Positions 9,571 to 62,000 of a stretch of DNA of 64,000 bases are shown here, piece by piece. The position numbers and the translations under genes were made by a program. The DNA comes from Agaricus subrufescens (taxonomy: Eukaryota > Basidiomycota > Agaricomycetes > Agaricales > Agaricaceae), in contig CM057058.1 of the NCBI GenBank assembly GCA_029945375.1, positions 868,001-932,000 of the forward strand, given 5' to 3'. Below the pieces are notes generated by a model, which was not told where the DNA came from, did not search any database, and saw nothing but the letters and a program-made list of their open reading frames with translations. Within the stretch, counting starts at the first letter, position 1. Each line of letters opens with the position of its first letter.

Positions 9571-9900
9571 CACTGCACCGACAAGTCAATAAATCATGTG
9601 TAGTATTGATGACTAATTAAAGTTAAATAGTTTAGTAAGCAAAAATATTTAAAATTTTATATCAATGACTTATTTTGGTTCGGACATCAATATGTGATCA
9701 ATAACAACCAAAGTGTATAAATATTTTATCGTGAAACTATTGATGTGCATATTGAATATATATTTAATACATATTTTGGCGGAGTCCAAAATAAGTCAAA
9801 AATATATTCAAATGTAAATCAAAGTCGTATTGAAATGGAATGCTATATATGTACATCATAAGTTAGGCATCACATCTATATTATATTGAGCACATGTTGA
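9571..9900 (+). repeat. Left terminal inverted repeat, outer AT-rich part
   Basis: This is very AT-rich DNA starting CACTGCACCGACAAGTCAAT. It contains several TCAAT/ATTGA words and the motif GACATCAATAT, all of which recur in the same order in the reverse complement of 41376-41705. Recurrent short subterminal words are typical of CACTA ends, where they bind an accessory transposition protein; that role is inferred here. Confidence 0.75.
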
Positions 9901-10548
9901 AAAGAATCCACTGGGAGAATCGTCTCGTCGACCACGATTTGATGCATTTTTTACCTGACGATTCAACTCACAATTCCTACTTCTAAACCAAAGTTGTAGC
10001 TTGGTTATCTGCTGGGGATTCGTATTGGGGAATCGAGTGAAGGTTTGCAGTCAATTCTCCGGTAGAGTCGGCTGACGCATTGACAAATGACTTGATGAGT
10101 GAATGCAATGCAGAATCAACGAGTCGAATGCAGTTTAACTGGGATCTAATCAGCAACACTTTTCACGCATTCAAATAAACTATCCTCCCCACAACAAGTG
10201 TAAGGAAGAGGCTCCTCACAGACTTAGCAATAGTCGGCTCAATTAGCCACGAGCGGACTGAGTAGACAGGGACTCGTAAAAGGGCCCTACAGGCGGACGA
10301 TGGCTGAGGCGACCAAATAAAACCACAACAATGAGGATCAACACTCACGGCTCAACGCGTCGAGCTTCCTCATTTTTCCTTACATCCAACTCTTAAAACG
10401 CCAATCTAATGACAGAACATCTCTGTAAAATGAATAGTGAGTTTTTTTCTCAAACAACGTCAGCACTACTCACTAGTATGCTATAGACCGAGACACAGAG
10501 TTTGTACTACAGGGCAAAGGCGAATCTGCAGGCAAAGAAAACGGGAAT

Positions 10549-11037
10549 CTAGCACAAGGAGACGTCGGTAATCAAACTTTGGACAACTACGGGTTTAGGA
10601 GCGATGAGCACGATAATGGCTACGAAGGAGACAACGAATCTTGCATATGTGAGCTCCAGGGGCCTGATGACGATAGCTGTGACAGTGAGCCGGCCAAGGG
10701 CAGAGTCGAGAACGAATTTCAGAGTGTCAATGGCAACGGCAATTCTGGAAGATCTTGGGAACTGGGCGAGGGTGAAGTTGAAAACGGTGGATATGATGGT
10801 GACGATGAAGCTGATGATGAAGACGTTTCGATGTAGTTGGCAACTATTCGGCGCAACTGTTACAAAAATCATGGCGCGTTTCAAATCGCGAGAGGAGAAG
10901 ATACTAAGTACGGCTGTGATACTGAAGTTTGGCTGGTAGGAACTTACTGTGGCGAACATATTTTGTGTAGTCGGACAATTCCTGCATAATGAAAGATCTC
11001 GATGTAGATATCGTGGACATATTGACGTAAGGCCCAA
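10549..11037 (-). CDS. Possible membrane protein of the arm family (copy L4)
   Basis: An open frame of about 160 codons has two hydrophobic stretches: FIISFIVTIISTVFNF near the middle and RFVVSFVAIIVLIAPKPVVV at the C terminus. The latter resembles a hydrophobic exon in the right arm (about 38,274-38,360 on the plus strand), so homologous sequence is present in inverted orientation in both arms. The opposite strand carries an overlapping acidic frame of 85 codons (10,579-10,836), and a serine/proline-rich frame also overlaps; which is translated cannot be settled by eye. Function unknown; probably the outermost, degenerate member of the family represented by L1-L3. Confidence 0.3.
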   Translation of the reverse strand: MGLTSICPRYLHRDLSLCRNCPTTQNMFATVSSYQPNFSITAVLSIFSSRDLKRAMIFVTVAPNSCQLHRNVFIISFIVTIISTVFNFTLAQFPRSSRIAVAIDTLKFVLDSALGRLTVTAIVIRPLELTYARFVVSFVAIIVLIAPKPVVVQSLITDVSLC

Positions 11038-11386
11038 GTGCGTTTGAATGCCAGCCGTGAGGAGAGGGCGAGAAAGATCTATTGAGAGGGTATGACGACA
11101 AGGGTTTTCTTCAATGAAAAAGACTTGTCTGCAGATACGTAATTCGCCATCTGGCTCCTAGAGATTATATTCGTCATCTAAAGATTAAATAAGAATAGTT
11201 TATGCGGACGAACGGTGAGAGGACAATTGGACCAAAGCTTGGAGGTTTCAGTATAAATAACAAACTCTACAGTGTTAGTCGTCAACCTGAGCATTAGACA
11301 TGTATCTGTTATGTACACAATTTCTTCACGACCAAAACTGAAATGATTATCGATCATCTGAACCGTTGCACTTTCTTTTGCCACCG

Positions 11387-12170
11387 TTAAGTGTCCGTTG
11401 TGAACAAGCCCTGGGTCCTGCCGTGAGGTAACCAAGTTAGCGTTGTTGTAAAACACACTTACTAACTCACCTGTTTAAGAGATCGGAATCGGATGTGGCG
11501 CACGCAACTCGGCCGTGGAAGGTTCTCAATTCAGAGCATCTACGCAAGTCGCTACGGCCCTTTCTAACGAACCTCTGAGTGAGCTCATGCAATAGTCTTG
11601 ATAAGTGCTCTAGACGGCCTTGTATGTTATGCAAGTAAGGCGTCCCGGGATCGTTGATGTCTGAGCCGGTGACTTGTCGCAACTGCATCTCAACTGTGAA
11701 AAGATAATTCAGGTTGTAGAATTGTTGGACAGCTTGTAGCCAACGGGGGAAAATACCCTCGAAATCGACCGTCGACACTGAGAAAGGAGAGCGAGATTGG
11801 CAACTACGAAACAAACACGACGAAAAAGGATCGGCATCCGCTGATGATGAAGCTGAAGATTAGTGTCAATGGTGTGTCAGTCACCAGCTACTGACCGCAG
11901 CGAATCTCGAGGTCCATACGGAGTCAGCGCGATAGATAGTCTCCTGAATCTCCATAATCCAGTAGAGTCGTAGAAAGTCAAGAATTAAAGCCTAACTTTT
12001 AGTTTCTGACGACAGCGACTATGGACTGTTTTAACAGGCTATGAAATCTGCAAAAAGGTGTCTAGTGAATGTGTTATCTTTCACTTTCGAGGCAATCAGC
12101 AAATTGACGATACTTGCGGCGAGGCCCACCTGAACCACGCAGAATATCGGTACGGCTGCCGACACCTGGA
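11387..12170 (-). CDS. Arm-family membrane/coiled-coil protein, partial (copy L3)
   Basis: Spliced minus-strand pieces: an exon after a TTCCAG acceptor near 12,166 encodes a membrane-spanning stretch (AVPIFCVVQVGLAASIVNLL). A later exon (about 11,467-11,814) carries RWLQAVQQFYNLNYLF and ends ...SDSDLLNR. A final mini-exon gives TQGLFTTDT and a stop at 11,387-11,389. The ending closely matches L2 and two right-arm remnants, which define the family: a long helical region, LRT-F/Y-, then (D/N)-LNR split by an intron, then a short tail. No first exon was found, so the copy may be truncated or silent. No known domain recognised. Confidence 0.4.
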
Positions 12171-12582
12171 ATAGAGTAGTCAGAACGGTTTTAGTAATAG
12201 ACCAACTAGCGTCTCTTTTCGCTTATCTTTCATATACATTAGAATTGTCGACTGGTGATTCCACTGGCGTTGACTAAGGAATCTGCTTGGGATTCGGCAG
12301 AAAAACAGGATTGAGGAGGTTCGAGTGGGGATTTGGAGAACTGACTTCAATTTGGCAATGGGCAAGTTGACTGGTGATTCAACTAGCGGCACTGTAGGAT
12401 AGTACAAATTCCTTGAGCTTCATCTAAATCGTTCAAATTCATGAGATGAAAGTTTGAATTCCTTATTCATGAGCAGTCATGATCGGTTGTCGTCAGCCCG
12501 ATGTTAGATTGAAAAGTATGTTTCTCTGTTATTCTTGACAAACTGGTAGTCGCTGAGGTGTGCCTCATATAAACAGGGGCAT

Positions 12583-13858
12583 CTAATAAGGTCTAGGCAT
12601 AGCTTGGTTCCTGTACACAAACAGGATTAGAGCCGCTGATAATACAATAATAAGACTCACCGATTTAAAACGTTAATATTGGGCGCAGCATGTAAAATTT
12701 TGTTGTAATACGTTCGCAACCTTTTACACCTCCGCAAGTTGCGCAACCCATCCCAAGTAGATCTACAAATAGTCTCCTGTAGCAGGTCTGACACCCGCCC
12801 TAAATAGAGTTGGCCTTGGAGAAGACTGGGCGATTCTCGTATGGACATTCTGAGTATTACCTGTTGGTTTAACTGGTGTAAACTCTGTACCACTTGAAAC
12901 CAACGAAGGGAGTCAACCTCAAACGTTGCTTCTAACCTCTTCAAGTCACGAGTAGCCACCACAAATTTATTGTAAAAGACCCCAGCACCCATGCCAATGC
13001 GTTCTATTGTCCACGTACGACGACGCGCAAGAGGAGGATAAAGAACCGACATGCTGTAAGTTAGATTAGTCAACGATGAAGAATCAGTCCAATTTTACTC
13101 ACTATGTGTCGATGGTTTCTGTCTGCTCCTTCAGCGCTAGTGAACTTTCAATGCAACGAGTGATATGGTCCATAAATGTTTCTATGATTCCGGTCATTCT
13201 ATTTTCTGACGTAGTATCTTCATGACCATTGACATGAAATGAAAGCTCTGCGACACAAGCTTTCAGTTCTCCAAATATCGATAACAGCTTTGTGGTATTG
13301 TCGTGGTGTGACAGTGTGTCGATAAATTGATTGTGATCATTGTTACCAAGATCACTATCATCTTCATCGCCGATTAGAGAAACAAAGTCACAGACACCAT
13401 TACTTTCATTGCCCACTTCCTCGGCGTCTGGCGCAGTATCACTATCGTCATGTTGTTGGGGAAAGAGAATGTCGGCAGATGGAGGAACTGGCATTACAGA
13501 AACAGCGCGTGTACACAAGAACGCTCCCAGCATGAAGAGGGTGAATCTATCTTGTGCCGGTAGAACAGAGGTATCCCAATTGCCAGCAGTCTGTTGAAAT
13601 ACTGAGAATAAAGTGGCTCTGGACGACTCACACTTACGGACAACTCCTGGGGTCTGGGCATCGGTTCCAGAGTATCCTGGTGACATAGTGATTCACGGGG
13701 CAGAAGCGTGAAGCCTCCACCGGGGATGAATCGGATCGCTTCAACGTCACCTGAAAAGAAGGGATGTCAGAATTCAGATGGTTTAGTAGAATAAGCAAGA
13801 CAGTACCTATGGGTCCAGGTATCATCAATGAGGTGTATTGCTCTGATTGAGAAGACAT
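12583..13858 (-). CDS. Arm-family membrane/coiled-coil protein (copy L2)
   Basis: The hand-spliced model has MSSQSEQYTSLMIPGPI as exon 1, followed by an intron ending TTTTCAG. Exon 2 contains FIPGGGFTLLP. The next exon has a hydrophobic stretch (FTLFMLGAFLCTRAVSV) and an acidic region (DEDDSDLGNNDHN). A long helical region follows, with GIGMGAGVFYNKF-like and RLRTYYNKILHAAPNINVLNR-like segments across introns. A last mini-exon, NQAMPRPY, ends at 12,583. All joins keep frame and have GT-AG borders; the intron at about 13,053-13,101 carries a CTAAC-type branch site. The product is about 350 aa, probably a single-pass membrane protein. It resembles L1 and L3. No family name can be given. Confidence 0.6.
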
Positions 13859-14099: not shown

Positions 14100-15760
14100 T
14101 TGTTATTCGATAAGGAGTTGTTAGCGGCGGTCACCAGGTACATTGATTTAAGTAGCCCTGAATCGGCCCTGGCACGCTAATTGGTTCCTCAAAGTGATCG
14201 CTTCAGCTTACCTTTGTAGGAGAATCTCGAAACTCGAATTTATTAACAACTTCGTTAAACCTCCAATACTATGAAGAATCTTGAGAGTAGATGGAATCGT
14301 AGTGATTCGTGATGATACTGATCTCCATTATCGCTGGCTTTGAATCTAACTGAGCATCGTTAACTAGAAAGTCGAGTCAAGTCCCGGGAAGTGGATAAGG
14401 CATCTTTGGTCAATATCTTCCAGTGGAAACGTTCTCTTTGGTCATTCAGTCTGCGCTTTTAATCTAGAATGGGCCTCACCAAAATCCATGCGGAGTCTAT
14501 GGGATATTATGGTTACATTGATCCAAAGAGAAAGACACCAGCTAGATGTTATACTTGACAGACACGGGTTTTCATTGTCGCCAGCCTAGATGCCAATCAA
14601 TCGTCGTATGACCAGAAAAAGGGAAATATCAGAGAGTCCAAGCTCCCGAGGGTACTTACGGCTGCACAGTTCGGAACCTACATATATATGATCATCGTTA
14701 CCTGTAACTACTATTTTCAACAGGGAATAAACGCACCTCAGGTTCTTCGATGTCCGGTGGAGGATGGTGCGAAGACAATGATTCCAAGGGAACAGTCATC
14801 GCGACAAACATCTGAAGAACAAGAACGCAAGGGTGATAAGCACTCTTTGTTCTATGAAATTGATGTCAAAGCTGCGAAGGGCATAACGCAACCTTCGACA
14901 ATCCATCTAATGGAGGATTTGGTATGCTCTCCACAAAACAAACGCCGAACGCAGGGTAATGTTGAAGGGCCGCTGGCACACTTCATCAGATGGCGATAAC
15001 TTCAAAGGGCTGTAAGCTCTCTCTGAAATGTGCTGGAGGACACATGTACTCTCCCGCGTCATAGGAAAGGGGTAAGCTAGCCAGAAACATGGAGATAGGT
15101 TTGAAAGAACAAGTGGTAAGCCATCACGCATGTGACCAAGTGGTCGAATGATGATTCGCTCTGATTCGCTGCTTCAGAATTTGCACGTGTTCACGCATGA
15201 TGCCGAGTCTCCAAATCTCCTAAGCGATTCTCCAAAAGAGAGAGAATACCCAACATGATTATGAATTCGGAATTTAAGATAATTCAAGAACAGCTAGGGA
15301 CTGTATAGCTAAGAAGTAAAGTTAACAGGAATTGTGTAATGTGAGTATCACTAAGAACACTGAATGACGTAGGGATACACTTGTACAAGGCGGTCCTTCA
15401 AACCACGTATATGACCGTCTTGAACTGTTACGACCATCGCCTCGCTCATAAGGCTTAGGTCGGCTCTGGTCCTCTGGGCGTCGACACGATCAAGGACAGT
15501 AAGGAGATCGAGCCCCGATACTGAACTTTTGAACCCAAAAGCAGCACCTATTCCCATAGGAATGATACGGTGACGAAGTGAAGACTCAGTAGATGCAATC
15601 AGGCGGCGACGGACATGCAATAAAGCCTCTTGTAGATAGTCCAAGTAGAGCTGCGCTTCTTTGATTTCCCCTCGGGACTGCGCCAACTGAGCTAGTCTGG
15701 GTTCAAAATCACAGGCGACATCTTGGACCCTTTGGTCGATGGTTGATCGTAAGAACAGCA
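14100..15760 (-). repeat. Inner block of left inverted arm
   Basis: This block is matched in reverse orientation at about 35,980-37,360. The match covers the 3' exon of L1, an intergenic part with the words TTCAGAGAGAGCTTACAGCCC, and a non-coding stretch up to about 14,100. Differences are enriched for C-to-T changes on the right copy (for example CGCCG on the left against TGTCG on the right). A diverged relative of the part at 14.7-15.1 kb also sits at 17.6-18.06 kb, so this module was duplicated before or after the arms formed. Confidence 0.75.
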
Positions 15761-17403
15761 GTTGATTACGGGAGAACGAAAATAGTTGCTTTGCAACAGA
15801 GATTCTGTCCAGAAAACAGTAAGCCGGCTAATCCACTGTGGCATTCGCATGGCCTACCTTTCATTGACTTCATCATTAACATCACTGACCCGTTGCATCA
15901 GCTTTGAGGATCTGGAAGATGCATCTAGAACAACTGCCAAAATGTTCGAAATAAATTGTTTGTCCTCGAGGTGACTGTCTTGCACCGTTCCAGCGAGCTC
16001 TACTACTAACGACTCGAGTCTGCCCAATTCCAATGTAGAAGCCACAGTAGAAGTCAAAATTGGCGCAGTGGGTCGGGCAAGCGAATCGGTAACACGTTGG
16101 AATGATAGAGCCACTCCCATGACAACTAAAACAACAAATAAGACGCCCTGAAGGCACGATACAAATGACTATACAGGATACTGTGAGCTCGATATTCCTT
16201 CATAAGAAATTTAACTGACCGGAAATCTGATGGGTGATCTGCGTGGACCCATAGGAAGAGTCGTCAAGGATAAAGCTCTGGTAGTTACTGAAAGATCCGT
16301 AAGAGTGATTCTAAAGCTGGTAGGGTACTACTTGCACGAGGTGTTTCCGACAACATCAGTTATTTGATTACGTTCAGCTTCTGCATAAGGTATTAACCAA
16401 TGTCTACTCAACTTGGTCCGGAACAGCACTTACCATAATGTCCTGGAAGAGTGTCAGCTATGGCATGAGGAAGATTCGAGGTGTACGCGTCCGCTGGCAG
16501 TCCCTCGCTGATGGGTGAAGACATGGGCCAGTCTTCCATGCGGTGAGGACTAGTAGACAGAAGTGAAAATTCACTCCGCAAAGCGGGGTCTTCTTCAAAG
16601 GATGGTGCATAAGAGACTGGTGAATCCATATTGAAATCTTCGTCCTCGGGCTCGCCAAGTGTCAAGGTATTGTCGGAGGGAATAATATATAGGGTAGATG
16701 AAGCTGATGCTTCGGCAGTAGAAGCTCCTTGAAAAGGCTGTGATGGATTATCCCCTTCACTGAGGCTACCAGTGTTCAAGGAAGCGTTAACAGAAGGGAT
16801 GAATACCTCTGGCTCAGAAGTCCCTGCTTGGAATGTTTGTAGCGAAACCGTTTGGTAATCGAGGGTAAAAGAACCTTCACTTTCCAAAGTGGGGTCGTCC
16901 TCGAAAGACGATACATGAGAGACTGGCGAGTTTGCGCTGAGATCTCCATTGCTGGTCCAGCCGGGGCTCATGAGATCGTCGGGGGAAGGAATGTATAGCG
17001 TAGTTGAGTCGGGGACTCCGGCAGTTGAAGCAGTTTCTTGTAAGGAATGTAATGGAATATCGCTTTCACTGAACCCGCCAGTGTTCAAAGAAGCATTCAC
17101 GGGTAGAACGGGCACCCCTGTCGCAGAAGTTCCTGCCTGGAATGATTGTAGTGAGACCGTTTGGTAATCGAAGGTAACGAAACCATTCACTGAAATGAGA
17201 TATTAGCAATGAGATTGGCAAAACATCAAGGCTTGTTTTGTAAGAGCGAAGAACTTACAAGCTGTTTTGAAAGCGTTATTGACTAGTTCCATGTCAACAA
17301 TGTCAGGGGGCTCTACGGAGGCTTTTGTAGGCCTCGTTTGCAAAGCTAAGCGCTTGGCATGCCTCGTCCGGCGAGGTGTTAAATAAGGAGTGAATCTCGG
17401 CAT
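15351..17403 (-). CDS. Arm-family membrane protein with tandem N-terminal repeats (copy L1)
   Basis: Spliced model: exon 1 at 17,403 encodes MPRFTPYLTPRRTRHAKRLA, basic and disordered. The next exon (about 16,435-17,190) encodes a Ser/Pro/acidic region holding two copies of a segment of about 100 residues, each starting FDYQTVSLQ(S/T)FQAGTS. Later exons give a membrane span (GVLFVVLVVMGVALSF, about 16,110-16,160), a coiled-coil-like region (LGRLESLVVELAGTVQDS), and a C-terminal part LDYLQEALLHVRRRLIASTES...IPMGIGAAFGFKSSVSGL with the stop at 15,351. Likely a nuclear- or endomembrane-anchored protein; the topology is inferred. The last exon is nearly repeated in the right arm (36.05-36.35 kb). 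No named domain was recognised. Confidence 0.6.
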
Positions 17404-18271
17404 CGTAGAGCTATAATTTGAAAGAAGAAAAAAGGTCAGATTACTGGCATCAGGAGAGCGAAGAACAGACTCTTATAAGCAGAGTCCCGGGAATGTATTT
17501 AGCATGTCTTGTAGTGGGTAAAAGTAGGCGTGGTCTCCAAGAAAGAATTGCCAGGTCACAAAATTCTTGGGATCCGGCGACCCTTAGACATTTATTCCGA
17601 GCGGCCTTTTGATGACCTGACGATATCTGTCGTGTGTATGCATGGGTCCAAGGAAACTGCCGTCGGAACAAAGACTCGAAGGAACAAAGGGCCTGCGGCG
17701 CGCTTCGTTCGATGAAATCGGTGAAGAATACCACGAGGGGAGAGCCGCACCCTTTGACGAATCATCTAACGGAATACTATAGATATCCCTTATAACAGTA
17801 CAGTTGCGAGCCATAGAAGAGGGGCTCAAACAGCCGTACTTTGAAGCCCAAGAGAGTGATGTCTTGCGGCACCGGAGAGTGACAGAAGTGGAACAAAGGC
17901 AAGGGGCCACCTGGCGCGCCTCACGGAGCGAGATTGACTTTCAGAGGGCCGTAGTGCTCTCTCTGAAAGACTTGTTGGAGGACCTCAGTGCTCTCATGTT
18001 CTTTCATACACATTTTGGGAATAAAAGAACCGGAAATATGATCAAGCAGATGCATGGGGGTAGAGATCGTCGATCGATTCAATTATTTGACGTCTGACAT
18101 TCATCTTCACCAATGACCAATCAACTTGTTAGCACGTGATGACGTGATGAAAACCAGCCGATCGTTGAGCAGGCACCGAGATTCAGATAGCTAGCACAAA
18201 ACTCAATTAAAATTCTCAGAACAAGGTAACGCATAGCAGCGAACAACAAGAGGAAAATCAATCTAAACCGT
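17404..18271. other. Intergenic DNA related to the 14.7-15.1 kb block
   Basis: This stretch lies between L1 and the next minus-strand gene. Its part at about 17,600-18,060 resembles 14,700-15,100 (shared features include GCTCTCTCTGAAA and a following TTGGAGGACC/CTGGAGGAC). It has higher GC and more CpG than the copy, so it appears to be the less decayed version of an internal repeat. The minus-strand frame 17,584-17,910 may represent upstream exons of an L1-type gene. No independent gene is called. Confidence 0.4.
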
Positions 18272-20560
18272 TCAAGGAAACAAGTGAGGGACACAAGCAG
18301 CTCTACCAAAATAGTCGAAGAAAGTTTGGCAATAGAAATCAGCTACCAAAGACTCGACGCGTTCAACGTTGACCTTGGCCCATGGTCCCTGGTTGTTAAC
18401 GTCTGTAGTAAATAGACTCTGTGGGGCATTTGGCCAGTCGACGACGACATTCCGAAGAGCTGAGATATATGGCCGCCTCTCCTCCCAATCGCCAGAAGAT
18501 AAACCATACGGGTGTTGAGGTAGATCGACAGTGAAAAGGCTTTCATGAACAAAAACGCTGCGGAGTTTGTTCTCTCGAAGAAGTGCGCCGTCTGTGGTAC
18601 GCCAGTCATCAACCAAAACACACCGATCAAGGTTAAATAATTCAAGATTAAAATTGTGCTGCTGCACATCCCAGGCAACCAGCTGGCGGTCCCGTAGGTC
18701 AAAATCAATTTTCCCCTGGTGCCAGACAACTCGACCATTCCAACTTATAGTTTCCACATCTGCCTTCTCTGGGGTTCTGATACAAAATATCGTTTTGGCA
18801 ATCTCACGAGATTTTGCGTTACGGCGGGCAGTACGGGAAACCTTTCCATGTCCCTCCGTTGGAGTAAAACGTTGGCGTGTGTGAGGACGGAGGAGCTCGA
18901 GCTCTAACATGATGTCGCGCAAGTAAGACCGCCATTGGTGGATGTGAGGCAACGGAACGGTACGAGGTCGGAAATCGCCCATGTGACTCAACCACCGGGT
19001 ACGGATTAAAAGCCAGGCAAGGACATTCTCCATGCTCTTGTTTTCATCGCCACACAGTATATAGGAACTCGGAAATGCATATCCTTTGAAAATGGAGCGT
19101 CGAGGGTGTTCGATAGGACGACGACGTACATCGACCTTTTTCAAAGCGTTTGCCCAGGAATCGGATGGCTTAGAACTATACGCTGACGTTGGTGGTTGGA
19201 ACGGAGCTAGATTAATTGAGTTGTCCGTTACTTTCATGGCGACTCGCTCGATTGCCTGCGCCTTTGAATCTACACATGGTCAGACTTCAGGAAAGAAAGT
19301 CGTGAGAATGCTCACATGGTTGGGCCCGCTGCCCATATTTGCCCGTACTGTTTTTTTGAAGACCGGATGTGTTTTGAGGACGAGCAGTTGTTTGAACATA
19401 AGAAGTGGAGGTGGAAGCAGTGCTTGAGGGGACAAGTACCGATTGCACCGAATGAGGAAGGTGAGCTTGACCAGTCTCCTGAGTTGAAGTGACTGAGTTT
19501 TCGTCGGCCACCGGGGTCATGTCTGCTTGACCTGGTTTCCATTTGTAGATTCCAAGATACATGTTGCCAGACAAAGGGCCACTATAAAAGACCGGGGCTC
19601 CAGTCATGCGCTTGACGACAATACCTGCTTGGACAGGTTCTTTGGGGTACGCCTGATCTATGATAGTTGCGTCGTCCGACACTTGAGATGGGCGTCGAAC
19701 AAGCCAGACAGGCACTCCCTTTTCATACATTTCATGAGCGACTTGAACACGATCAGTAATGCAGCCCATTAGTTCATTGTTGGCCTCAGGGTAACCTTCG
19801 TGATTCGGGACCATATGATCAAATTTTGTGATCTTGTCTAAGAGTGCGCGAACCTCGAGGAAGCATCGTTGGGCCCATGTAACGTTCAACTTCATCGTAA
19901 AGTAGCTCGAGGAGCCAAATTTGAGGGCGGCGACGCAACCACGCATCTGGGCGGCGGCTATTTGAAGTTTCTGATGGTCCGATCCATTGCTACACTCGCA
20001 AGACTCGACTTCTTCCATGAACTTGGTGCGGAGCTCGTAAAATTGCTCTGCTATAGTTGGGTTGAGACGTCCATCATCGTCTCCGCCACCTTCCGAATTA
20101 GGATCAAAGTGGCAACTGCCAATGTCCAACCATAGCTGTCGAAGGGGGTGAGAGTACAAGTGGCTGGGCTTGGGTTTACGAAGGATATAAGCCAAGTGTT
20201 CTTGACCATCGAAATACCACTGAGGCCATTGAGCCCAGTCCTCTGCTCCCCAGCGTCCGTCGTCACAGATTGTGATTACTTGCTTTTCGAGATGAATTTG
20301 AGGTAGATAATCGGCATTGGGAGTGCTGATGACCAGTCTATCACTCTTATTAGCCAGAGTGTCGACACCTTTGGTGTGTGCTGATATATATCTTGACTTG
20401 AGCTGGCCAATCAATCGCGCGTCCGTTACTTGAATCTGACCTGAGATATCTTAAGCAGTTTCGACCAAATTTTATGAACACGCATGTACGTACTATCATT
20501 CGGGCGACAGAATGAGGCGAAGATAAGATTTCCAGCATTGTCGACTACTCTCGGTGGCAT
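18272..20560 (-). CDS. Large basidiomycete protein of unknown function
   Basis: The model has three exons. Exon 1 at 20,560 encodes MPPRVVDNAGNLIFASFCRPND, then an intron GTACGT...TCTCAG. Exon 2 (to about 19,318) contains WPQWYFDGQEHLAYILRKPK, an IGSCHFDPNSEGG segment and a helical middle. After a GTGAGC...TGTGTAG intron, exon 3 contains WLLIRTRWLSHMGDFRP, a basic patch KVSRTARRNAKSREIAK, and VVWHQGKIDFDL. The stop is at 18,272. Joins are in frame and the product is about 730 aa with no stop inside, so the gene looks intact. I recognise the style of a widespread agaricomycete hypothetical-protein family often next to transposons, but no enzyme motif or catalytic residue can be named. Cargo of the giant element, transcribed away from the WD40/SUN pair. 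Confidence 0.7.
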
Positions 20561-20785
20561 GTTATCTATACCGCTTTCAGTGATATGTTGGATAGCAAAA
20601 TGTGGCAGCTGAGCGACGACATAGTCTGCTCACAAGCGTGTAGGGACTTTACAGTTCACCTCCAAGAATGCGTAGCACGCGGGCGATTCATGATCCTACC
20701 CAATTTACACGCTCAAAGAAAGAACACGACTTACCTGAGTCAGAGGACGCCGTGAATGCACGTAGTCGGTTGCTGAAGAAAAGTT

Positions 20786-20933: not shown

Positions 20934-21356
20934 GATCGGCAGGTACTTTTATATTAGGAGGAAGGGGCGTATATTTATACAGCTGGATCACATCACATGT
21001 ACAGATAAAGCAACCCGACGAATGTCAGAAATGCGAACCAGAGATAGTGGATGGTTAATCTTTGTGAATCCTTGTTCTTGCGGGGCACTATAGGATATGA
21101 ATCAGACAGCTTCGCACATTTGATTATGTATCACTTGCCATCGACACGCCAAATATGAATTGCTTTCGGGCTCTCGGTAATGGCGGCGATTCGGCACGTA
21201 ACTTGTGATTTAGTATAAGTTCGCGTCCACTTGACAATCATATTGGTTAATATTGAGGCATACAAGGATTGGAAAACTACGCACGGCAAGGTGTGATATA
21301 TTTTGATGCTCTGTCCACCGCTTCAGTTTGAGATATCGGCACACGCAAATCAGCAA

Positions 21357-22914
21357 CTAACCGGGAATCTCAAAAATACGATGATCCCTCCGCTCTATGT
21401 GCCATAATACTAGCTTGTTCTTCATAGCAGCAAGAATACACGTTCCCTGGTGAGCCCACACCATCGGTGAGCCATGAGAGATACGATCCGGGGAACGTAA
21501 GCAACGGTAATTGTTGCCATTGCGTCTCTTGTATATTCGGATCTGCTTTTCAGAAGGGACAGCATAGAACGTGCTTCCTCCGGCGAGAACAAAACCAGGA
21601 TCTGTTGAGCTTTCTGAAACGATCCTACCCGTTTCAAACAACGGGCGGTAGTTGGTCGTGTCCCACGTTCTTCATTGATGTAAACGTTAGTGCCATGCAG
21701 GAATAGCAAGGCGGATGAACTGACACGATGCCTTGCTTCAAATAGGAGACAACCAAGTGTGTAGTATGATCGTGATCCCATTCAATGCCAGTTACCACAA
21801 CGTTTGTTTCGTCGTTCTCATCCTGGGGATTTCCGAGCTTACGGATGAAGGTCCAGGCATGGTAGGGATCACTATCGTCTAAAAAGTTTCTGTGTTAATG
21901 AGCATTCTTGAACTGTAACAAGCGACTTACTCCCTTTGAAATCCCATAAAGTCACTTCATCCTCACCACCCAAAGCAAGCTGACCCCTTGCATTATTGAT
22001 CGCAATATGCTGTATGGATCTTTGACTCGCTCGGAATCCCTCGGAATTATACGGCTGTAAAAGAATCACTGAGCTGAGATAGTATAAGGGCTTAAATTGC
22101 CGATACCTTATTGGCTACGACGGCCACAACGGTCAGCCAACCAGCACTGCAGCCGAAATATAGGCAGTCTCGCATATCCCAAGCAACAGAAAGAACCACA
22201 GATCCAGGTTTTTGATAACATAGGATGGGTTTCCAACTGAGAGTACTCCAGACATAGACACTATTATCTATACCGACAGCGAGAAAACTGCCGCCGAGAG
22301 AAAAGGCTAAGGCGTTGAATTTTTTGAAAGTAACTAAATTTTGTGTCAGCATGTGTTCTAAGTCATCTGGAAGATGCGTTACCGTCGTCGATGGGGGGGA
22401 AAAGAACTTGCTCTGGAGAGTATACTGCCATATCAAAGGGATGTTCAAAAATTACAGAAATCGGAAATCTATTTAAATGGGTTACTCTCAGGGTTGATTG
22501 CGTTCTTTGAGCCAGGTATAGAATCGTTGTCAAGGGATTTCCCCAGCAGGTACTTGGCGACGAATAGTTCTATCAAGTGCCTGGAAAGCCCATTGTGGGA
22601 TTGAGGGACCGTGTCTCTCTCAGTCACAGCGCAAGCGACGTAATCAAAGTCTGCTCATTGAGGCCCGGAAGGAGAGAGGATGCTTATATAATTGTTTTGA
22701 CTGCCGTATATAGCTGGCATCAAATACAATTGATCGACTTCCACCACCAACACGCACGAGAGAGAATGTAGTATCCTCTCGCCGTACCATAGAGCGTCCG
22801 TTCATGGTCTGCTGAATCAATTGTCATCGGAGAGTACTCATTGTCCTCCTTTACAACAGGGTTTCCCCGGATATCAATTTGGGAGTCACTCGAAAATCGG
22901 GAGATAGTTGGCAT
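21357..22914 (-). CDS. WD40-repeat-like protein
   Basis: Exon 1 starts at 22,914 (MPTISRFSSDSQIDIRGNPV) and ends at a GTACGG donor near 22,788. Later exons encode blade-like units: FNALAFSLGGSFLAVGIDNSVYVWS (about 22,240-22,320), VVLSVAWDMRDCLYFGC, IQHIAINNARGQLALGGEDEVTLWDF (about 21,940-22,020), VVTGIEWDHDHTTHLVVSY, and a last exon with YAVPSEKQIRIYKR, MVWAHQGTCILAAMKNKLVLWHI and the stop at 21,357. The spacing of hydrophobic strands ending in VYVW/VTLWD/LVLWH is that of WD40 propeller blades, so it probably acts as a binding scaffold. The path between exon 1 and about 22,448 was not resolved. It starts 47 bp from the divergent SUN gene. The partner is unknown. Confidence 0.65.
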
Positions 22915-31200: not shown

Positions 31201-31568
31201 GCACTCCGTTTTGGCGGAACCTAGATGCACAAGATTTCTTTGCAGTCTGGGATCATTTGGATATCGCGCAGAGGTATGGGCCCGATGGTAAACCTAAGGG
31301 CAAGGGCAGGTTCCCCCGTTACCGCCATCAACCGAATCCACCCCGCAAGAACATCGACGCGCCTATTGCTCCTGGACTTCCGCTTAATTTTTACGATCCA
31401 CTTTGGTACAGCACCCTCGACGAGATTGAAAAAGAGGCCGTTAATGCTCGGCCTCCGATTGATTTAACATTACCTCGAGGCATCCTTCGGTATGTGTCAC
31501 AGTCGTCTGATACCCCTGCCACACGGACTGATTGTATCACAGCTTTGGTCAAAGGCATGCCCATATAA
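28222..31568 (+). CDS. Large acidic/basic nuclear-type protein of unknown function
   Basis: A hand-spliced model of about nine exons starts MRT|DSSAPERRKERAFDPL at 28,222. In-frame introns lie at about 28,230-28,276, 28,544-28,595, 29,161-29,208, 30,041-30,096, 30,121-30,166, 30,249-30,299, 30,569-30,610 and 31,000-31,039, with the stop at 31,566-31,568; roughly 980 aa. Short duplicated units are seen: RAF(D/H)(P)LRRSCE-type at the N terminus, and KRK...(S)IW(K/N)F(A/P)(V/I)DD in the lysine/glutamate-rich middle. A DCGKCKSC motif at about 30,300-30,323 could bind metal. The C-terminal third (FDGPSPVTPWNIRIAHLL, FWRNLDAQDFFAVWDHL) looks globular. Such a protein upstream of Tnp2 invites comparison with the accessory TnpA DNA-binding protein of CACTA elements; that is inference only. 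Confidence 0.6.
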
Positions 31569-31674
31569 GGACTCGTGATGATCGCCCACTGCCAGCTTGA
31601 ATTTCTTTGTTTTAGTTAACCCCGTTCGGAAAACAATAAATATATATACGTCTACTCAAGAAATCTTCCCTTTC

Positions 31675-34600
31675 ATGGCCCCAAACTTTTGTCGTTGCCC
31701 TCAGTGTGGTCCAGATGGCCGCCGTCTTGGTACCATCGAGTTCCAAATCCATCAAGTGTCGGATAATCGTCATGAAGCTCTTGCCCACATTCCAAGTGAA
31801 AGCAGTGCTGAGCTTACATCACTTGATTCACCGACATTCTTGGTAGACGTCGGCCAACCGTCGGGACTTCATAATCACCCCACATCACCAGCACGTTATG
31901 CCGCCGCATGGGCATGGCTAGCCCAAGTTGATGCCCAGCTACTCCAACGAAACGCATCCATCCTCAGAGGCCGACTCCGATCTCACTCATTCAGATTCTC
32001 TATCCCGCCTCGCAGTCAGACGCACCTGTATCCTCTCGTTGACCCCACGGTACTTGCACTCGATGACAACTCGCAGCACAATCGTTTGGTTATAAGCCAC
32101 GATCGATGGTTAGAACAACAGAAATTAGCTGGTCATTCATACTTGAAGGATTGCATTGGAGATACGTCCTTATCACGGGAACTTATACTCATGTTAAAAC
32201 GATTGCGACGTGATAGTACCGAGATTTCTTCTATGAAGCAGCTCGAATGGGAAAGGCAACGGTGTATAGCTTCAGAGGTCAATCAAGTAGATCCAGGTAA
32301 GAGCATTTGCTCGTCTTAACTTTCCTCGCTTATGCGCTACAACAGGGCCATATATGGATTCACCATTTTCCAGTATGGAACCTTGGGTAGCACTTTGGTA
32401 TATTCTAGTGCTCTCCCTCCACCTACTTTCTGGCGTATCTCTGAAGATTTGCACATTCTATTTCTCCGGCTTAAAGCAGCAACCGAATGTTTTTGACGTG
32501 CCCAAAGAGGTCGAGGTGCAATGTCAGTCCCTGCCCGGCACCGTTGAAACCATCGTCAAGCGAACCAATATCACTCCGAAATTCAAATCCTTCATTTGTT
32601 GTCCTAACTGTTTCTCGCTTTACGACCATGAAGATGGGGTCCCGCGAGTCTGCACCTCCGTTGAGGATCCTGGCGGTCCTACATGTGGAGCTGCCTTGTA
32701 CAAAAACAGCACTAACAAGCCTGTTCGCGAGTATATCATGCATGACTTCAAAGACTGGCTTGCCCGACTATACGCAAGACCTGGTATGGAAGAGTATCTC
32801 GACAGGGATGTTTACGGTTCCACTACAGAAATGAATGATATTTGGGATGGATCTGTTCTGAGGAGCTTTAACGGCACAGACGGCAAATTGTTTGTGCCCC
32901 ACGGACGTAGACATGTAGAGGGGCGGTTAATTTTTAGCCTCAACATGGACTCTTTCAATCCCTTTGGAAACATGCAAAACGGCAAGCACGTCTCCATTGG
33001 CGCCATTTACATGACTTGTCTTAATCTCCCACGCGAGCTCCGGAACAAAATGGAGAATATCTTTCTCGTTGGTATCATTCCGGGACCTAACGAACCTTCC
33101 CTCACGCAAATCAATCATATTACCAAGCCCCTTATCGATGTTCTACTTGAGCTCTGGATGCCTGGCGTTTATTTGCGCCGAACTCGTAAATACCCGAGAG
33201 GTAGAAGAGTGAAGGCTGCCGTTGTTCCCCTGGTTTCCGACCTCCTTGCTGCAAAGAAGATGGCTGCATTCGCGAGTGCTACATCCAAAAACTTCTGCTC
33301 CCATTGTCACATAACACTCAACGAGATACACAATCTCGATTACTGGACTTGGAAGCGACGAACTTGGAATGAACATCTCATGAATGCCAATGCCTGGAAG
33401 AATGCTTTGACCAGCGAAGAGCGGGATAGGATCTTCGCCAACTATGGGGTGCGATGGTCAGAATTATTGCGACTACCATATTGGGACCCATCGTCATTTG
33501 TTGTCATTGATTCGATGCATTGTTTCTACCTGGGTTTGTTCAACCGACACGCCGTTCAAGTATGGGGTATGGATGCAACAAAAGATGACAGCGACAGCAC
33601 CGTTCACAAGCTTAAGGCTCCAAATGAGGGAGCGATGCAGGCAATGGCATTCTTTCAAGCGAATGACCTTTCAAGGCTAGCTAGCTCATCCTGGAACGCC
33701 CTCGCCTTTGTATGTGCCAGTTTGGGCATTCCTTGTGATGGAACAAAGGAGGATATGCTCCTGCGACTCAAAAACGTGAGCTTCCCTGTCGATTAATCTC
33801 TTGACCACGACTGAAGCCAAAGCATCTCAGCGGTGGAACGACAGCAATGCGCTAGGCTCAACTCAAATACCTATCTCTGTAAGTATTTGACCGGATATTT
33901 GGATATGGACTCTCCCTTATTCTGATATTTGGCGATCAAGAAGGTTGCCACGTCGAGTAACAGCGTCACCCCACTTCAAGCCATGCAAACAATCCTAGAG
34001 ATACCCTCAATCGATGTGGACAATGTCACAGAATCAAACTTATCAAAAGAGGAGGCCACGAATCTCTGGCATAATGCCACGAAATCCAAATTGAGAAGTC
34101 GCAAAAAGGGCGATCTTCTAGCTATACTACTTCATCAAGGGGTCGCTCGAGCTGAACTTGAAACATTAAAGAAGAATGATTTGTTTGACAAGATTCAAGC
34201 ACTGGTAATCCGCCGAACATATGCTTAAGAATACCTATTGACTATTTTCTCAGCGGAAGGAGCAACGCATCATTGATATTAATGAGAAAAAACTACGAGT
34301 GGGGAACCCAGTAAAAACATCTCGACTCACCCGTCAATCATCTTCAATAATTATCAGCCAAGACCATGGTTACGTGAAAGCGGCAATCCCGGCAGCTGTA
34401 GAACGCCACCTCCTGGCACATGGGCATGTCGAAGGCACGGTTTCAGTTGTACGTTTACTGTTTAGTCGGATAGGTTTCTGTTCCTCTGACCCCGACTTTA
34501 GCCCCCCCGAACAGCACCGGACATAGCAGGGAATACCGAAAAATATGTTTTAGGCAAGACGATGATTCCAAAGATCCGCGAAGACATGGGTCGGTTGATC

Positions 34601-35788
34601 ATTCCTTCATGGGTACCAAAAGGTCCAGCACACCCTGGTGAAGCAAAGGGGGGGAAACTTCACGCTGATCAATGGCGTTCTTTCTTCACCATCAATCTCC
34701 CCATAACCTTGCTCAGACTGTGGGGCGGTGATTATGCTGAAAGCAAGAAAGGACAAATGTTGGGGAATTTTTTCCATCTAGTCACTGCAGTAGAACTTGC
34801 CTCACGCCGCACTGTAACAGAGAGGCATGTTCGGCTTTATGAGGAACACATGCATCAGTATTTGGTAACATTATCACGGTTGTTCCCTAAAACCAAGCTA
34901 GTCCCTAATCAACATAACGCCCTACACTTTGGAGAGTATCTCCGACGTTTCGGCCCTACGCACGGATGGAGGTGTTTTGCCTTTGAACGCTTCAATTATC
35001 TACTCCAACAGACTAGCACCAACAAGATCGTTGGTTCGTGTGGTTACTTATATCCCAAAACACGTTGCTGACATGTCTCTCCAGGTAAAATAGAGGGAAC
35101 CATGTTCCGCAAATTCTGCATGGCCCAAAACCTTCGCTCGCTCTACAACTCAGGGCGGCTTCCAGACCAGTTACGTTTGCTGGTTGATAAATTTTCCACA
35201 ACTTTCAATCACGACTTACGTGGCACTCTCTTGAACGAAGACTCGAACAATCATTCATCAGACTGTGATCTGCGTCGCATGAAGGAAGGAATTTTATCCA
35301 GAGAAACGTATCAATTACTTGTTTCTTGGACAAAAATTCATGATTCTCAAGTATTCAAAGAGTTGTCTCGCAAAGTTCTGTATCTCAACGCCATCTACCG
35401 TGATGTTGTGTATAAAATTCATCGGCGATCTCCTCCCGACAGTCACATCATCTTCACTCTTGATGACACCGACGAAGGAAAACCTGGCTACATTGAGTGC
35501 ATATTTACTCACAGCCGCACGACAACAGATGGTAAACAACAGGAAGACACGTTTATTGTGGTACATCCCTACCAGACCGTGTCCTTACAAGAACCATATC
35601 AGAATGTTTCTCTCCATATGACAAAGTTTTCCTCTGCTTCTGGGTTTTTTTTCCGAAAAACACAGTTGCCTCCAACTCTTATTGTCATGAACCAGATTCG
35701 CGGTCATTTTGGCTTTGCACTTACGGACTATGACAATGAGCAACATTCGCAGATATTCCAGGGTCTTCCTCTTTTTAAGGTCTGTTGA
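31675..35788 (+). CDS. tnp2: Tnp2-type (CACTA/EnSpm) transposase
   Basis: Predicted to cut and join the ends of the element. The start at 31,675 gives MAPNFCRCPQCGPDG, with an N-terminal Cys cluster. The first intron is at about 32,297-32,345, followed by a long exon to about 33,775. Further in-frame introns lie near 33,776-33,821, 33,881-33,941, 34,204-34,253, 34,449-34,499 and 35,033-35,083. Landmarks: zinc-type FICCPNCFSLYDHE, LNMDSFNPFG (first Asp candidate), SIGAIYMTCLNLPRELR, a second cluster FCSHCHITL, PYWDPSSFVVIDSMHCFYLG (Tnp2 D-MH---LG motif), and late QHNALHFGEYLRRFGPTHGWRCFAFERFN, which matches the DUF4218-like end of Tnp2 proteins and offers the Glu. No internal stops; about 1,200 aa. 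Apparently intact, so the element may be autonomous. Confidence 0.85.
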
Positions 35789-36029: not shown

Positions 36030-36400
36030 TGTTCAATGCTCATTCAATTCGGAGATTCAAGGTTGAAGATGTTGCCTGTGATTTTGAACCCAGACTAGCT
36101 CAGTTGGCGCAGTCTCGAGGGGAGTTCAAAGAGGCGCAGCTCTACTTGGACTATCTGCAAAAGGCTTTATTGCATGTCTGTTGTCGTCTGATTGCATCTA
36201 CGGAGTCTTCAATTCGTCATTGTATCATTCCTACGGGAATAGGTGCTGCTTTTGGGCTCAAAAGTTCAGTATCGGGGCTCGATCTCCTTACATCTCTTCG
36301 ATCGCATGGACGCCCAGAGGATCAAAGCCAACCTAAGCCTTATGAATAAGGCGATGATCCTCACAGTTCAAGACGGCCATATACGTGGATTGAAGACCCT
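36030..36400 (+). pseudogene. Remnant of L1-type gene, last exon
   Basis: The frame encodes DVACDFEPRLAQLAQSRGEF, then LDYLQKALLHVCCRLIASTES and IIPTGIGAAFGLKSSVSGL, nearly identical to the end of L1 on the other arm (15,351-15,720). After SGLDLLT the frame is shifted relative to L1 (DRMDAQRIKANLSLMNKA continues in another frame), so this copy is broken. No upstream L1 exons (repeat region or membrane span) are present. Confidence 0.75.
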
Positions 36401-37498
36401 TAACCATTCTCGAATTAATTTGAGATTTCGAGTTCATTATCATGTTGGGTATTCTCTCCCTCTTGGAGAAGTCGCGTAGGAGATTCGGAGATTCGGCATC
36501 ACGCGCAAACACGTGCAAACTCTGGAGCAACGAATCAGAGCAATTCATTAGTCATATGCTCCCACAAGCGCAGAGCGGCTGCACATTGTTCCTTCAAACC
36601 CATCTTCATGTTTCTGATCAGCTTACTCTTTTCCTATGACGCAGGAGAGTACGTATGTCCTCCAGTGCGCTTCAGAGAGAGCTTACAGCCCTTTGAAGTC
36701 ATCATCATCTGATGAAGTGTGCCAGAGCCCTTCAACATTACCCTGTGTTCGACGTCTGTTTCGTGGAGAGCATGCCGAATCCTCCACTAGATAGACTGTC
36801 AGAGGTTGCGCTATACCCTTCGCGGTTTTTGCACCAATTCTATAGAACCATGAGAGCTTATCGCCCTTGGGTCTGTGTTCTTCAGATGTATGTCGTGACG
36901 ATTGTTCTTTCAGGATCATTATTTTCACACCATCCTCCACCAGACATTGAAGAATCTGAGGTGCGTTTATTCCTTGTTGAAATGGTAGTTACAGCTAACG
37001 ATGACCATATATATGTAGGTTCCAAGCTGTGCAGCTGTAAGTATCCCTTGAGAACTTGGACTCACTCTCTGACCTCCCTCTTCCCGGCTACACGACGATT
37101 GATTAGCATCTAAGCTGGCGACAATGGTGACTCATGTCTCTCAAGCACAACATCCAATTAAACATCTTTCTCTTCGGACCAATGTAACCACAACTCTACC
37201 GAATAGACTCCGCACGAAGTTTTGTGAGGCCTCTTCTAGATTAAAAGCACAGACTGAATGATCAAAGAGAATCTTTCTAGTACAGTAACACTGACCATGA
37301 CTATATATGGGGGTTACTCAGATTTTATGAGATTGACTCGACGTTGAGTGACCGCTTTCAAAATCGCTATGATTCGCTCATGAATCTCTTATGCCTACAG
37401 TTTCTCACATGATACTCCCATACTTCCCCTTGACAGGGATGCAATTACATTCCATCCCAATAACCTCTTAGGAACCTCATTTGTATCGAGTTCCTCTT

Positions 37499-38994: not shown

Positions 38995-39989
38995 AGTAAT
39001 CCTAGCTTCATTGTGACTTATCGACTTTTTCATGACTAATCACCATGGTATTTTCAGTCTGAGAAGGCATTGTGTACATGTTATTGTTCAACATACGCTC
39101 TTCTTCTTACTATCTTTTTCTGCGGGAAGACCGTTTGGAATATTCGCATCATACTCTGTCTCGTTTCGTTATTGTGTCCTGAAAATTTCACCCTGATTGG
39201 AGTTCGGTGTGTACGTGTATGTGTTGAAGTTGAAGGTTCCAGGTTGAAGGTTCCAGTGACGCGTGATGAGGCCGCAAGAGGAAGACTTTCAATGAGGGTG
39301 CAAGATGAGGCTCAAATGCGCCCAAAGCCACTTATAGCTTGTTGTAACATTTTTTGGTCGCATGTGAGTGGGCAAGGTTCTGAATTAAGTCGCGATAAAT
39401 GGAATTGAATTCTAGTAACATCGTCCGTGGATGATCGACGGCAATATATACAGCAAAAAAACCGAACACACGCTGCTGTTTTGACTACTGGGTGACGGCA
39501 GACAACCTCTAGTTGAAATGAAACCGAGCAGATGAGGCCCTTTTGCGAAGAGAGGGTGAGCTTTTTGCTGTTTTTTTTGACTGGAGAATCACCTTTTTGT
39601 ACCTTCAGCCACTCTAATCAGTCAAAATCATCGTCTTCTTCGTCGTCAGCATAGTAGCCATCCTTGGTGTCTTCATTTTTCACCTTGCACTTCGTCATAC
39701 TCGCTCTCTTTTTTGATATGCCCCCCTTTGACCGCCCCCCGCCAGCAATTGATAATCCGTCAGCGTTGTCTGATATATCGGCTTCATACTCTGCCTCCTG
39801 TGTGTAGACCCCAATGTTCTCTGTATTGCCGTTCTTAAACTGCCCTAAAGGTAGGCATTAGAAGTCCGGATCTTCATGAGGTCCCAGTAAACTTACTATG
39901 CTTAACATCCATGGTCTGCGACGTTCGATTGTACTGGTCAGTGTAGAAATGACTGTAAGTCTAATTTTTGTCCGCGGCCTGTTGTAGCA

Positions 39990-41050
39990 TTGTTTGGCTC
40001 TAACATCAGTCGGGAGAACCTTCCCTTCGCTAGTCATCAGTACCTCATCTAGAATTGCTGCCCATGAACGCTTACTAGCAGGCCCCCTCCCCCATACGTC
40101 GCCATTATCACTGTCTCGCGTACGTCTCTCATCACTCACTCTCCCCAAGGCCCTCTTCACTGTCTCCCACAGCTAGCACGGGCACTGGACTCACTATAAT
40201 TATCCACCGCTGTAGTCAAGACAGTCACATCCGACCGCCAGAGATCACAAGGATTCAACGTTGAGCTGAACAGTCTCTTTCCACCGGGAAAGACCGTGGT
40301 GAACCCATATCCTCAGTGTCGCCGAGAGGACAGCGAGAGCCTGTGCCCACAACGAGACCCCCTCTCCTATCTCCCACATCCGCGCCGACCCCCATGCCAG
40401 GCTCTCCAATGCGGCCTCCACTCGCAGCTTCCTCCCCCAGGGCGAGTCCCGCTATTCACACTCTCCTACCACAGCCGTCGTGCTTTCAGAGTCCTCCTGC
40501 CCTCCTTCCCAAGCTTCCAGTCCACCTCCTTTTACCGCACGGCCACTCGTGAAAAAGAACCTGCACCGACATCCAGCAATGTCCTGTCTCCCCTGCTCAA
40601 CCTGTGCACGTGGTTCACTCTGTATTCTGGTTGGAACACTCCAAGACGCGTCGTACCTTAATCAGTGGCCTCTATCAGATGTTAAAACCAAATGGCGGTA
40701 AGCTAAAAGGTCCAGAGAGGATATTTTGACTCACCGCTCCCTAATCCTTACTCCTGCTCCACTCATAGACGAATCCATCAATACTGACCCTGACCTTGAC
40801 CGAGTGGCATTAAAAGAGCATCCTTCCGGTGCAGTGGAGCACGGGGTGGTAAATGGGAAGGTAAATGAGAGAACGAGAACGAGCGAGATAGATCAAGTGG
40901 GGATGAGGTCCTTTCTGCGAGGCAAAGGTGAGCGACTGCTGTATTGTGGCAATGGGAACTGAAAATCAAAATGAATTACGACAGAGACGAGAGTTTGGAA
41001 TTCGTCTGCTGGGTCAACCTCGGAAGTCTCTCCTTGGCAGCGTAGGATGT
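39990..41050 (+). pseudogene. Captured host gene fragment, unidentified
   Basis: This CpG-rich block stands out in the decayed right arm and has no counterpart seen on the left. A plus-strand frame encodes a Pro/Ser-rich stretch (TTRPPLLSPTSAPTPMPGSP, about 40,350-40,410). A second encodes LILTPAPLIDESINTDPDLD (about 40,740-40,800), running to SFLRGK. It joins by a GTGAGC...CGACAG intron to ETRVWNSSAGSTSEVSPWQR and ends at a GTAAGT donor (about 41,050), beyond which terminal element DNA begins. This is the pattern of gene capture by a transposon. The source gene was not recognised, and a minus-strand frame (39,858-40,160) overlaps its start. Confidence 0.4.
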
Positions 41051-41375
41051 AAGTACGGTTTACGATTAGTCTATTTCACTCACCATCTCAATTCCTGTTA
41101 GCCTAGTTCTACTTGTTCATTAAGCAACTACCCAACTCTAGTAAAATATCCGCTCGAATCTCTTCAATCCCTTTTTCTGCCAAATCCCAAACTGATTCCT
41201 TAGTCGACGCCAGTCGAATCACCAGTAGACAATTCAATTCTACGACTACATTCGCTCTAACATTGATTCAACAATGTCACAATTCTTCACTGAATCAATT
41301 TTCCCTAACCGATTCACAAATTGAACTCAAGGTGAATCACTAGTCAAATCGTCAGTCGACAATATGACTCTCTCT

Positions 41376-41705
41376 TTAATATTTATAGAATAAAGTCATG
41401 ATGTGACCCCCGTCTTATTATAAACATATACAGCAACCCGTTTTAATACGTCATCTATTTTCGTCTAAACATATCATTGTAATATTTTGAACTCCGATCA
41501 GATATGTATTCAATAGTCGTTCAATATATTTACTGATAAGTCAAATATGAATTATTTATATGTGTGGACCAATATTGATTCAATATTGATGTCCAGAGAA
41601 AAATATCTTATCAATATATAACTTTAAATATTTTTGCCAAGTAATTTATTTGACTTCAATAAGTTATCAATGCAATACGTGTTTCATTGACTTGTCAGCG
41701 CAGTG
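41376..41705 (-). repeat. Right terminal inverted repeat, outer AT-rich part
   Basis: The reverse complement begins CACTGCGCTGACAAGTCAAT and aligns with 9571-9900 with interspersed mismatches (for example GGACATCAATAT in both). The short motif ATATGTATT(C/T)AATAGT(C/T)GTT occurs inside at about 41,502 and again just outside the end at about 41,707, which is unexplained. Confidence 0.75.
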
Positions 41706-57318: not shown

Positions 57319-57360
57319 TTCAGGTGAATGGAGATTAGAGAGTTTGTCTAGACCCAGGGG

Positions 57361-61965: not shown

Positions 61966-62000
61966 CATATGGCTAGATACATTGGTTCGTGAGTTTGTGC

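What the first reader, a model, noticed from the sequence alone, without database searches (positions are those of the whole stretch)
9571..41705. A 32-kb CACTA-like transposon with ~6-kb inverted arms and about a dozen genes
The two ends share an inverted CACTGC-C-GACAAGTCAAT terminus, the arms match each other in inverted order for kilobases, and an intact Tnp2-type transposase sits beside the right arm. Typical CACTA elements are 5-20 kb with short terminal repeats and two genes. A gene-rich element with long arms would be a cargo-carrying giant transposon of a class better known from ascomycete Starships, but with a different transposase.
Basis: partly seen in the sequence, partly recalled or inferred. 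Interest (0 to 1): 0.92.

Follow-up and report, generated by a model that had tools for sequence, protein, structure and literature searches.

The report
Gene-rich fungal transposon with SUN gene
A 32-kb jumping DNA element in a fungal genome carries about eleven genes, among them one for a SUN-domain (nuclear-envelope type) protein that lies beside the transposase gene in most related places of the same genome, which suggests that such elements make their own link to the nuclear envelope.

Summary
The element is real: 32,135 bp (9571-41705), ends CACTGC...GCAGTG, TATA on both sides. Two more copies lie in the same 44.65-Mb genome. Related elements B (26.9 kb) and C (29.4 kb) have the same kind of ends and 4-bp duplications. 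The transposase is Tnp2-type. The "6-kb arms" are mostly not repeats: 1,787 of 6,630 bp match inverted, chiefly one 1.3-kb duplication not seen in B. The main result goes beyond the finding: the other genes are not loose cargo. A and B share them gene by gene; 31 of 41 ORF comparisons give dN/dS of 0.41 or less. A SUN-domain gene (62 bits, cut-off 22) lies within 40 kb of 16 of 19 Tnp2 loci of this clade (16 of 20 with decayed fragments on C3) and of 0 of 10 more distant ones; genes X, Y and V behave alike. I read it as a CACTA-related multi-gene transposon lineage whose core includes a SUN protein; how SUN helps is inference. Unsolved: the three A copies share their left flank but have three different right flanks starting exactly at the transposon end. 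Rearrangement and assembly error could not be told apart.

The parts
9571..41705 (.). Whole element A, 32,135 bp; ends CACTGCACCGACAAGTCAAT (left) and CACTGCGCTGACAAGTCAAT (right, reverse complement)
9567..9570 (.). TATA, left target-site duplication
41706..41709 (.). TATA, right target-site duplication; the C9 and C6 sites without the element hold one TATA at this point (AGAAG-TATA-TGTATT)
9571..9876 (+). Left terminal inverted repeat (306 bp, 69.6% to the right one)
41400..41705 (-). Right terminal inverted repeat; 41167-41709 is 87% alike to the right end of element C
14426..15724 (+). Left copy of the internal inverted duplication (81-89%)
36066..37277 (-). Right copy of the internal inverted duplication; repeats the end of gene G
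11467..13692 (-). ORFs of unknown function (11467-11859, 12657-13094, 13102-13692); the first two match the same ORF of B
15351..17472 (-). Gene G, unknown, several ORFs (dN/dS 0.18-0.49 to B)
18272..20629 (-). Gene X, unknown, about 700 aa over two long ORFs; both ORFs match one 674-aa protein of Leucocoprinus birnbaumii
21131..23089 (-). WD40-like gene in several ORFs (Pfam matches below curated cut-offs); dN/dS 0.08-0.14 for three of its six ORFs compared, 0.37-0.57 for the other three
23138..24001 (+). SUN-domain gene (Sad1_UNC, PF07738): N-terminal hydrophobic stretch, then a C-terminal SUN domain
24310..24964 (-). Gene Z, unknown (main ORF 24310-24696, dN/dS 0.23)
24913..25979 (+). Gene V, unknown; near SUN in 19 of 25 SUN places; frame interrupted here, one 340-aa open frame in element C
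26673..27542 (+). Coiled-coil-like gene (many weak coiled-coil Pfam matches)
28226..30042 (+). Low-complexity, charged ORFs (28586-29179, 29152-30042)
30295..31568 (+). Gene Y, unknown, next to the transposase (dN/dS 0.12-0.27)
31582..35788 (+). Tnp2-type transposase, several ORFs; motif positions: D codon 32948, CxxC 33296-33307, D codon 33509, HxxxH 34913-34927, E codon 34985 (catalytic role assigned from the published motif order, not tested)

Best explanation
Element A is a multi-gene DNA transposon of the CACTA/EnSpm-like (CMCT) kind. Its Tnp2-type transposase acts on the CACTG...CAGTG ends and inserts the element at a TATA-like site with a 4-bp duplication. About eleven genes move with it. 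X, SUN, V and Y, besides the transposase, are old parts of the transposon lineage rather than random cargo. Shown: ends, 4-bp duplications, copies, gene conservation between A and B, and the association of SUN, X, Y and V with this Tnp2 clade. Inferred: cut-and-paste movement, and that the SUN protein sits in the nuclear envelope and helps the element (tethering it or its transposase there, or steering it towards meiotic chromosome contacts or nuclear movement in the mycelium).
For: TIRs and 4-bp duplications in A (TATA), B (TATA) and C (CATA). Single-TATA sites without the element on C9 and C6. Tnp2 domain and D, D, E, CxxC, HxxxH motifs. A and B match gene by gene through the interior; dN/dS: transposase 0.10-0.27, X 0.13 and 0.17 (short third ORF 0.50), Y 0.12-0.27, SUN 0.24; over all, 31 of 41 ORF comparisons at 0.41 or less, 8 at 0.49-1.45, 2 not computable. 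SUN within 40 kb of 16 of 19 Tnp2 loci with 42-100% identity and of 0 of 10 at 34-36%; X 16 of 19, Y 16 of 19, V 15 of 19, each 0 of 10; chance about 0.03-0.05 per locus. Gene order differs between sub-lineages (coordinates), so the set is kept while its order is not.
Against: All three A copies share their left flank (at least 9.5 kb), so independent transposition of A itself is not shown. The decayed Tnp2 fragments on C3 (67-74% identity) were left out of the 19; they have none of the four genes within 40 kb, so counted in, the figures are 16, 16, 16 and 15 of 20. Some of the 19 loci are copies in duplicated blocks (C19 and C11 are identical for 2.2 kb of flank on each side), so independent lineages number about five. 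The genome searches score only the best candidates, so SUN genes too diverged to be seen near the 10 distant Tnp2 loci are not excluded. Ends of the 42-54% lineages were not seen. V is interrupted in A, and 13 of the 41 matches in B contain a stop, two of them in transposase pieces and one in V; they may run into introns. Neither AlphaFold2 model was usable (X pLDDT 49.6, SUN 41.7). Nothing here shows where the SUN protein goes.
Confidence: 0.8

Rival explanations
1. An ordinary CACTA transposon that picked up passenger host genes, SUN among them, by chance.
For: DNA transposons are known to capture host gene pieces (recalled); V is interrupted in A; 8 of 41 ORF comparisons have dN/dS 0.49-1.45; nine of 25 SUN places have no Tnp2 of this clade within 40 kb.
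Against: The SUN, X, Y and V set recurs with Tnp2 down to 44-54% transposase identity and was not found near the 34-36% group; 31 of 41 comparisons have dN/dS of 0.41 or less.
Confidence: 0.12
2. On the three A copies only (not exclusive with the best explanation): they are segmental duplications or assembly effects rather than transposition products. The three blocks of left flank plus A arose by recombination in A, by aberrant (alternative) transposition at its right end, or by mis-joining of contigs.
For: Shared left flank in all three copies; C1 and C2 match at probes spread over 0.5 Mb; four 500-bp probes between C2:4380001 and C2:4420500 read N; C19 is identical to C11 including 2.2 kb of flank on each side; no substitution in A but 12-15 per pair in the left flank.
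Against: Breaks fall exactly at the TIR plus TATA, with three right flanks that do not match one another; sites without the element exist for the window's right flank; B and C lie elsewhere with their own duplications. The left half of that site was found at no transposon end, which speaks against a simple composite insertion too.
Confidence: 0.45
3. A Starship-like cargo element.
For: Size, gene richness, several copies.
Against: Tnp2-type transposase with TIRs; none of the 32 element ORFs scanned listed a tyrosine recombinase family (one of the lists was cut at 25 of 48 families).
Confidence: 0.01

Closest known systems
CACTA/EnSpm and the CMCT clade (Kojima 2025, PMC12730594; abstract, three sections and passages seen)
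   Same: 5'-CAC..GTG-3' ends, Tnp2-related DDE transposase with C(2)C and H(3-4)H motifs; CMCT duplications are 2-5 bp.
   Different: 4-bp duplication (fungal EnSpm there: 3 bp), about 300-bp imperfect TIRs, about eleven genes including SUN.
Enlarged En/Spm of Chondrus crispus, 16-20 kb with 4-5 ORFs (passage in the review PMC6431247; the original paper not seen)
   Same: Multi-gene CACTA elements.
   Different: Smaller, fewer genes and another host; the passage names no SUN gene.
TET/JBP-bearing fungal DNA transposons, KDZ and Plavaka (PMC12730594, as above)
   Same: Fungal DNA transposons that keep a host-like accessory gene.
   Different: TET/JBP instead of SUN; no TET/JBP family listed for the 32 element ORFs scanned; Plavaka profile below its cut-off.
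Starships (abstract starts in the listing)
   Same: Size and gene number.
   Different: Starships are classed by a tyrosine recombinase; this element has a Tnp2-type transposase and TIRs.

Membership tests
CACTA/EnSpm | CAC..GTG termini | tested here: met
   A, B and C all start CACTG at both ends
CACTA/EnSpm | 3-bp target duplication | tested here: not met
   4 bp: TATA, TATA, CATA; 3 bp does not fit C
CACTA/EnSpm | Tnp2-type DDE transposase with C(2)C and H(3-4)H | tested here: met
   PF02992 46.6 bits; motifs present in order
CACTA/EnSpm | Subterminal short repeats | tested here: inconclusive
   TATTGATG: 5 of 5 sites in A and 4 of 6 in B lie in the terminal 1 kb; motif chosen after looking at A, and the ends of A and B are homologous
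CMCT clade | CA..TG termini and 2-5 bp duplications | tested here: met
   definition
Plavaka | Plavaka transposase; TGT..ACA or CATCA..TGATG ends | tested here: not met
   17.7 bits against a cut-off of 26.3; ends differ
Starship | Captain tyrosine recombinase | tested here: not met
   32 element ORFs scanned, none listed; shorter and spliced ORFs not scanned
SUN-domain protein | Sad1_UNC domain | tested here: met
   62.1 bits against 22; matches to solved SUN1 and SUN2 domains, best E 1.4e-9
SUN-domain protein | Nuclear-envelope location and KASH binding | not testable with these tools
   A hydrophobic N-terminal stretch is seen in A and B (sequences); location unknown

The most novel reading that the evidence does not exclude
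A lineage of CACTA-related transposons has made a LINC-complex component (SUN) part of its own core machinery: the element-encoded SUN protein anchors the element or its transposase at the nuclear envelope and so aids its spread, perhaps through meiotic chromosome contacts or between the nuclei of a heterokaryon.
Probability: 0.3. Interest if true: 0.88.

Novelty: new variant of a known kind. Interest (0 to 1): 0.72.

Why it matters
A transposon lineage that keeps its own SUN-domain gene would tie DNA transposition to nuclear-envelope architecture, and would be a eukaryotic DNA transposon with a large conserved gene set rather than a transposase plus cargo. Four paper searches that combined SUN with transposon terms listed 0, 2, 0 and 17 papers, and one on SUN in fungi without a transposon term listed 10 of 22. 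Judged by titles and abstract starts none describes such an element; only open-licence PMC papers are covered, so work outside that library is not excluded.

Tried and rejected
AlphaFold2 of X (via P0012) and of SUN gave low-confidence models, so no fold search was run. The X profile matched no PDB chain. The first position-by-position comparison script broke off early and was replaced by an alignment. A macrotransposon bounded by a further element end at the far side of the shared block: the left-end search found only the A and B ends on C1 and C2, so this was dropped. The full sequence of C and the ends of the 42-54% lineages could not be fetched. Passenger-cargo, Starship and Plavaka readings were considered and judged unlikely (see rivals and membership). 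Rfam, PHROGs, NCBIfam and PADLOC were not used.

Full report
What is there. The window is C2:868001-932000 of an unnamed 44.65-Mb genome in 44 contigs. It is taken for a fungus: of 13 relatives of gene X found, the five with an organism name are from Macrolepiota, Leucocoprinus and Leucoagaricus, so Agaricaceae or a near family is likely (inference).

Ends. Element A runs from 9571 to 41705. Its termini match inverted over 306 bp at 69.6%, and TATA stands on both sides. B (C2:743635-770569, 26,935 bp) has CACTG ends and TATA on both sides. C (C19:31447-60815, 29.4 kb) has CACTG ends and CATA on both sides. A 3-bp duplication does not fit C; 4 bp fits all three. The first 1.0 kb of the right flank of A is found without A on C9 and C6 at 99.1%, with a single TATA at the junction.

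Arms. Seven inverted matches cover 1,787 of 6,630 bp of the left arm; the control in direct orientation gave none. Most of it is one 1.3-kb inverted duplication that includes the end of gene G. In B, at a less sensitive setting, the only inverted match is a 257-bp TIR. Parts of A's right arm (38852-39002, 39595-40040, 41371-41710) match B's left arm in inverted orientation at 72-89%, while parts of A's left arm also match B's left arm directly (for example 13386-14579, 89%) and the interiors are collinear. So arm sequence seems to have been copied or exchanged between the ends (inference).

Genes. I count about eleven ORF groups (parts list). The transposase has PF02992 at 46.6 bits; motifs for D, D, E, CxxC and HxxxH are in place, their meaning taken from the published motif order and recall. 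The SUN gene has Sad1_UNC at 62.1 bits and a C-terminal SNWG...TC.Y stretch shared with solved SUN1 and SUN2 domains. The WD40-like gene is weak (below Pfam cut-offs). X, V, Y, Z and G are unknown. Gene starts and introns were not determined.

Association. Of 33 Tnp2 matches I used 29 places: 19 with 42-100% identity and 10 with 34-36%. Left out were a second piece on C5 and three fragments with stops on C3 (67-74%), which have no SUN, X, Y or V within 40 kb; counted as one more place they make 19 into 20. SUN lies within 40 kb of 16 of 19 and 0 of 10; X 16 of 19 and 0 of 10; Y 16 of 19 and 0 of 10; V 15 of 19 and 0 of 10 (25 of 26 SUN matches, 24 of 26 X matches, 16 of 16 Y and 20 of 20 V matches used, second pieces of one place dropped). 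Misses: C26 and C5:3202532 have none of the four; C29 lacks SUN and V, C18 lacks X and Y, C5:54658 lacks V. Nine of 25 SUN places have no such Tnp2 within 40 kb; four of these have V near, three of them X too, and some of the rest may be host genes. These searches score the best candidates only, so absence is weaker than presence. Several loci are duplicates of one another, so about five lineages (A, B, C, and those at about 54% and 44-46%) support the point.

The anomaly. Copies at C2:4439181 and C1:1330572 equal A without a single substitution over the element; the window copy has an extra 74-bp tandem unit at 20786-20933. All three share the left flank, which differs by 12, 13 and 15 substitutions per pair in about 10 kb, plus one 7-bp difference, and the three right flanks do not match one another beyond TATA. 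The C1 and C2 blocks match at C2:735-775 kb (99.95%), 600001 and 400001; at 100001 and 5001 the mirrored C1 stretches fetched held no match, while the ground between was not read. Upstream of C2:4439181 four 500-bp probes read N, by assembly gap or withholding. Simple transposition does not give shared left flanks. Recombination within A, alternative transposition of the kind shown in maize (PMC4270019, abstract seen), or mis-assembly could; the left half of the empty site was at no transposon end. I leave this open.

How it may work. The transposase probably cuts at the CACTG ends and inserts at TATA-like sites with a 4-bp stagger (inference from ends and duplications). SUN proteins are part of the LINC complex of the nuclear envelope; in a basidiomycete yeast that complex acts in kinetochore clustering and nuclear migration (PMC6034078, abstract and outline seen). 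A conserved element-borne SUN could tether the element or its transposase. This step is a hypothesis.

Noticed in passing
window 43126-43599 (-): COG3 C-terminal gene part (PF20671) about 1.4 kb from the element. The first 1.0 kb of the right flank, nearer the element, has 99% copies on C9 and C6 and partial relatives on C11 and C7; 42365-42830 resembles 53549-53981 in the window.
   Followed up: partly
window 45434-46936 and 48772-50421 (+): Two NACHT/NPHP3_N ATPase genes.
   Followed up: no
window 51458-53016: Small transposon-like unit with about 345-bp inverted ends starting CAGTGGGCAAC and TA on both sides; a 94% copy lies about 1.4 kb from element B.
   Followed up: partly
window 56646-63505: LTR retrotransposon (end repeats 95% alike; reverse transcriptase and integrase domains; Ty3-like by recall).
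   Followed up: no
C1:1330572 to about 1840000 and C2:400000-909705: Near-identical ground in opposite orientation on two contigs, seen at probes over 0.5 Mb, that ends exactly at element A's right end.
   Followed up: partly
window 13386-14579: 89% DNA identity to B where the rest of the interior is mostly 64-78% alike; 19 of the 21 differences between the two B copies also cluster in and near this stretch, which hints at gene conversion.
   Followed up: no
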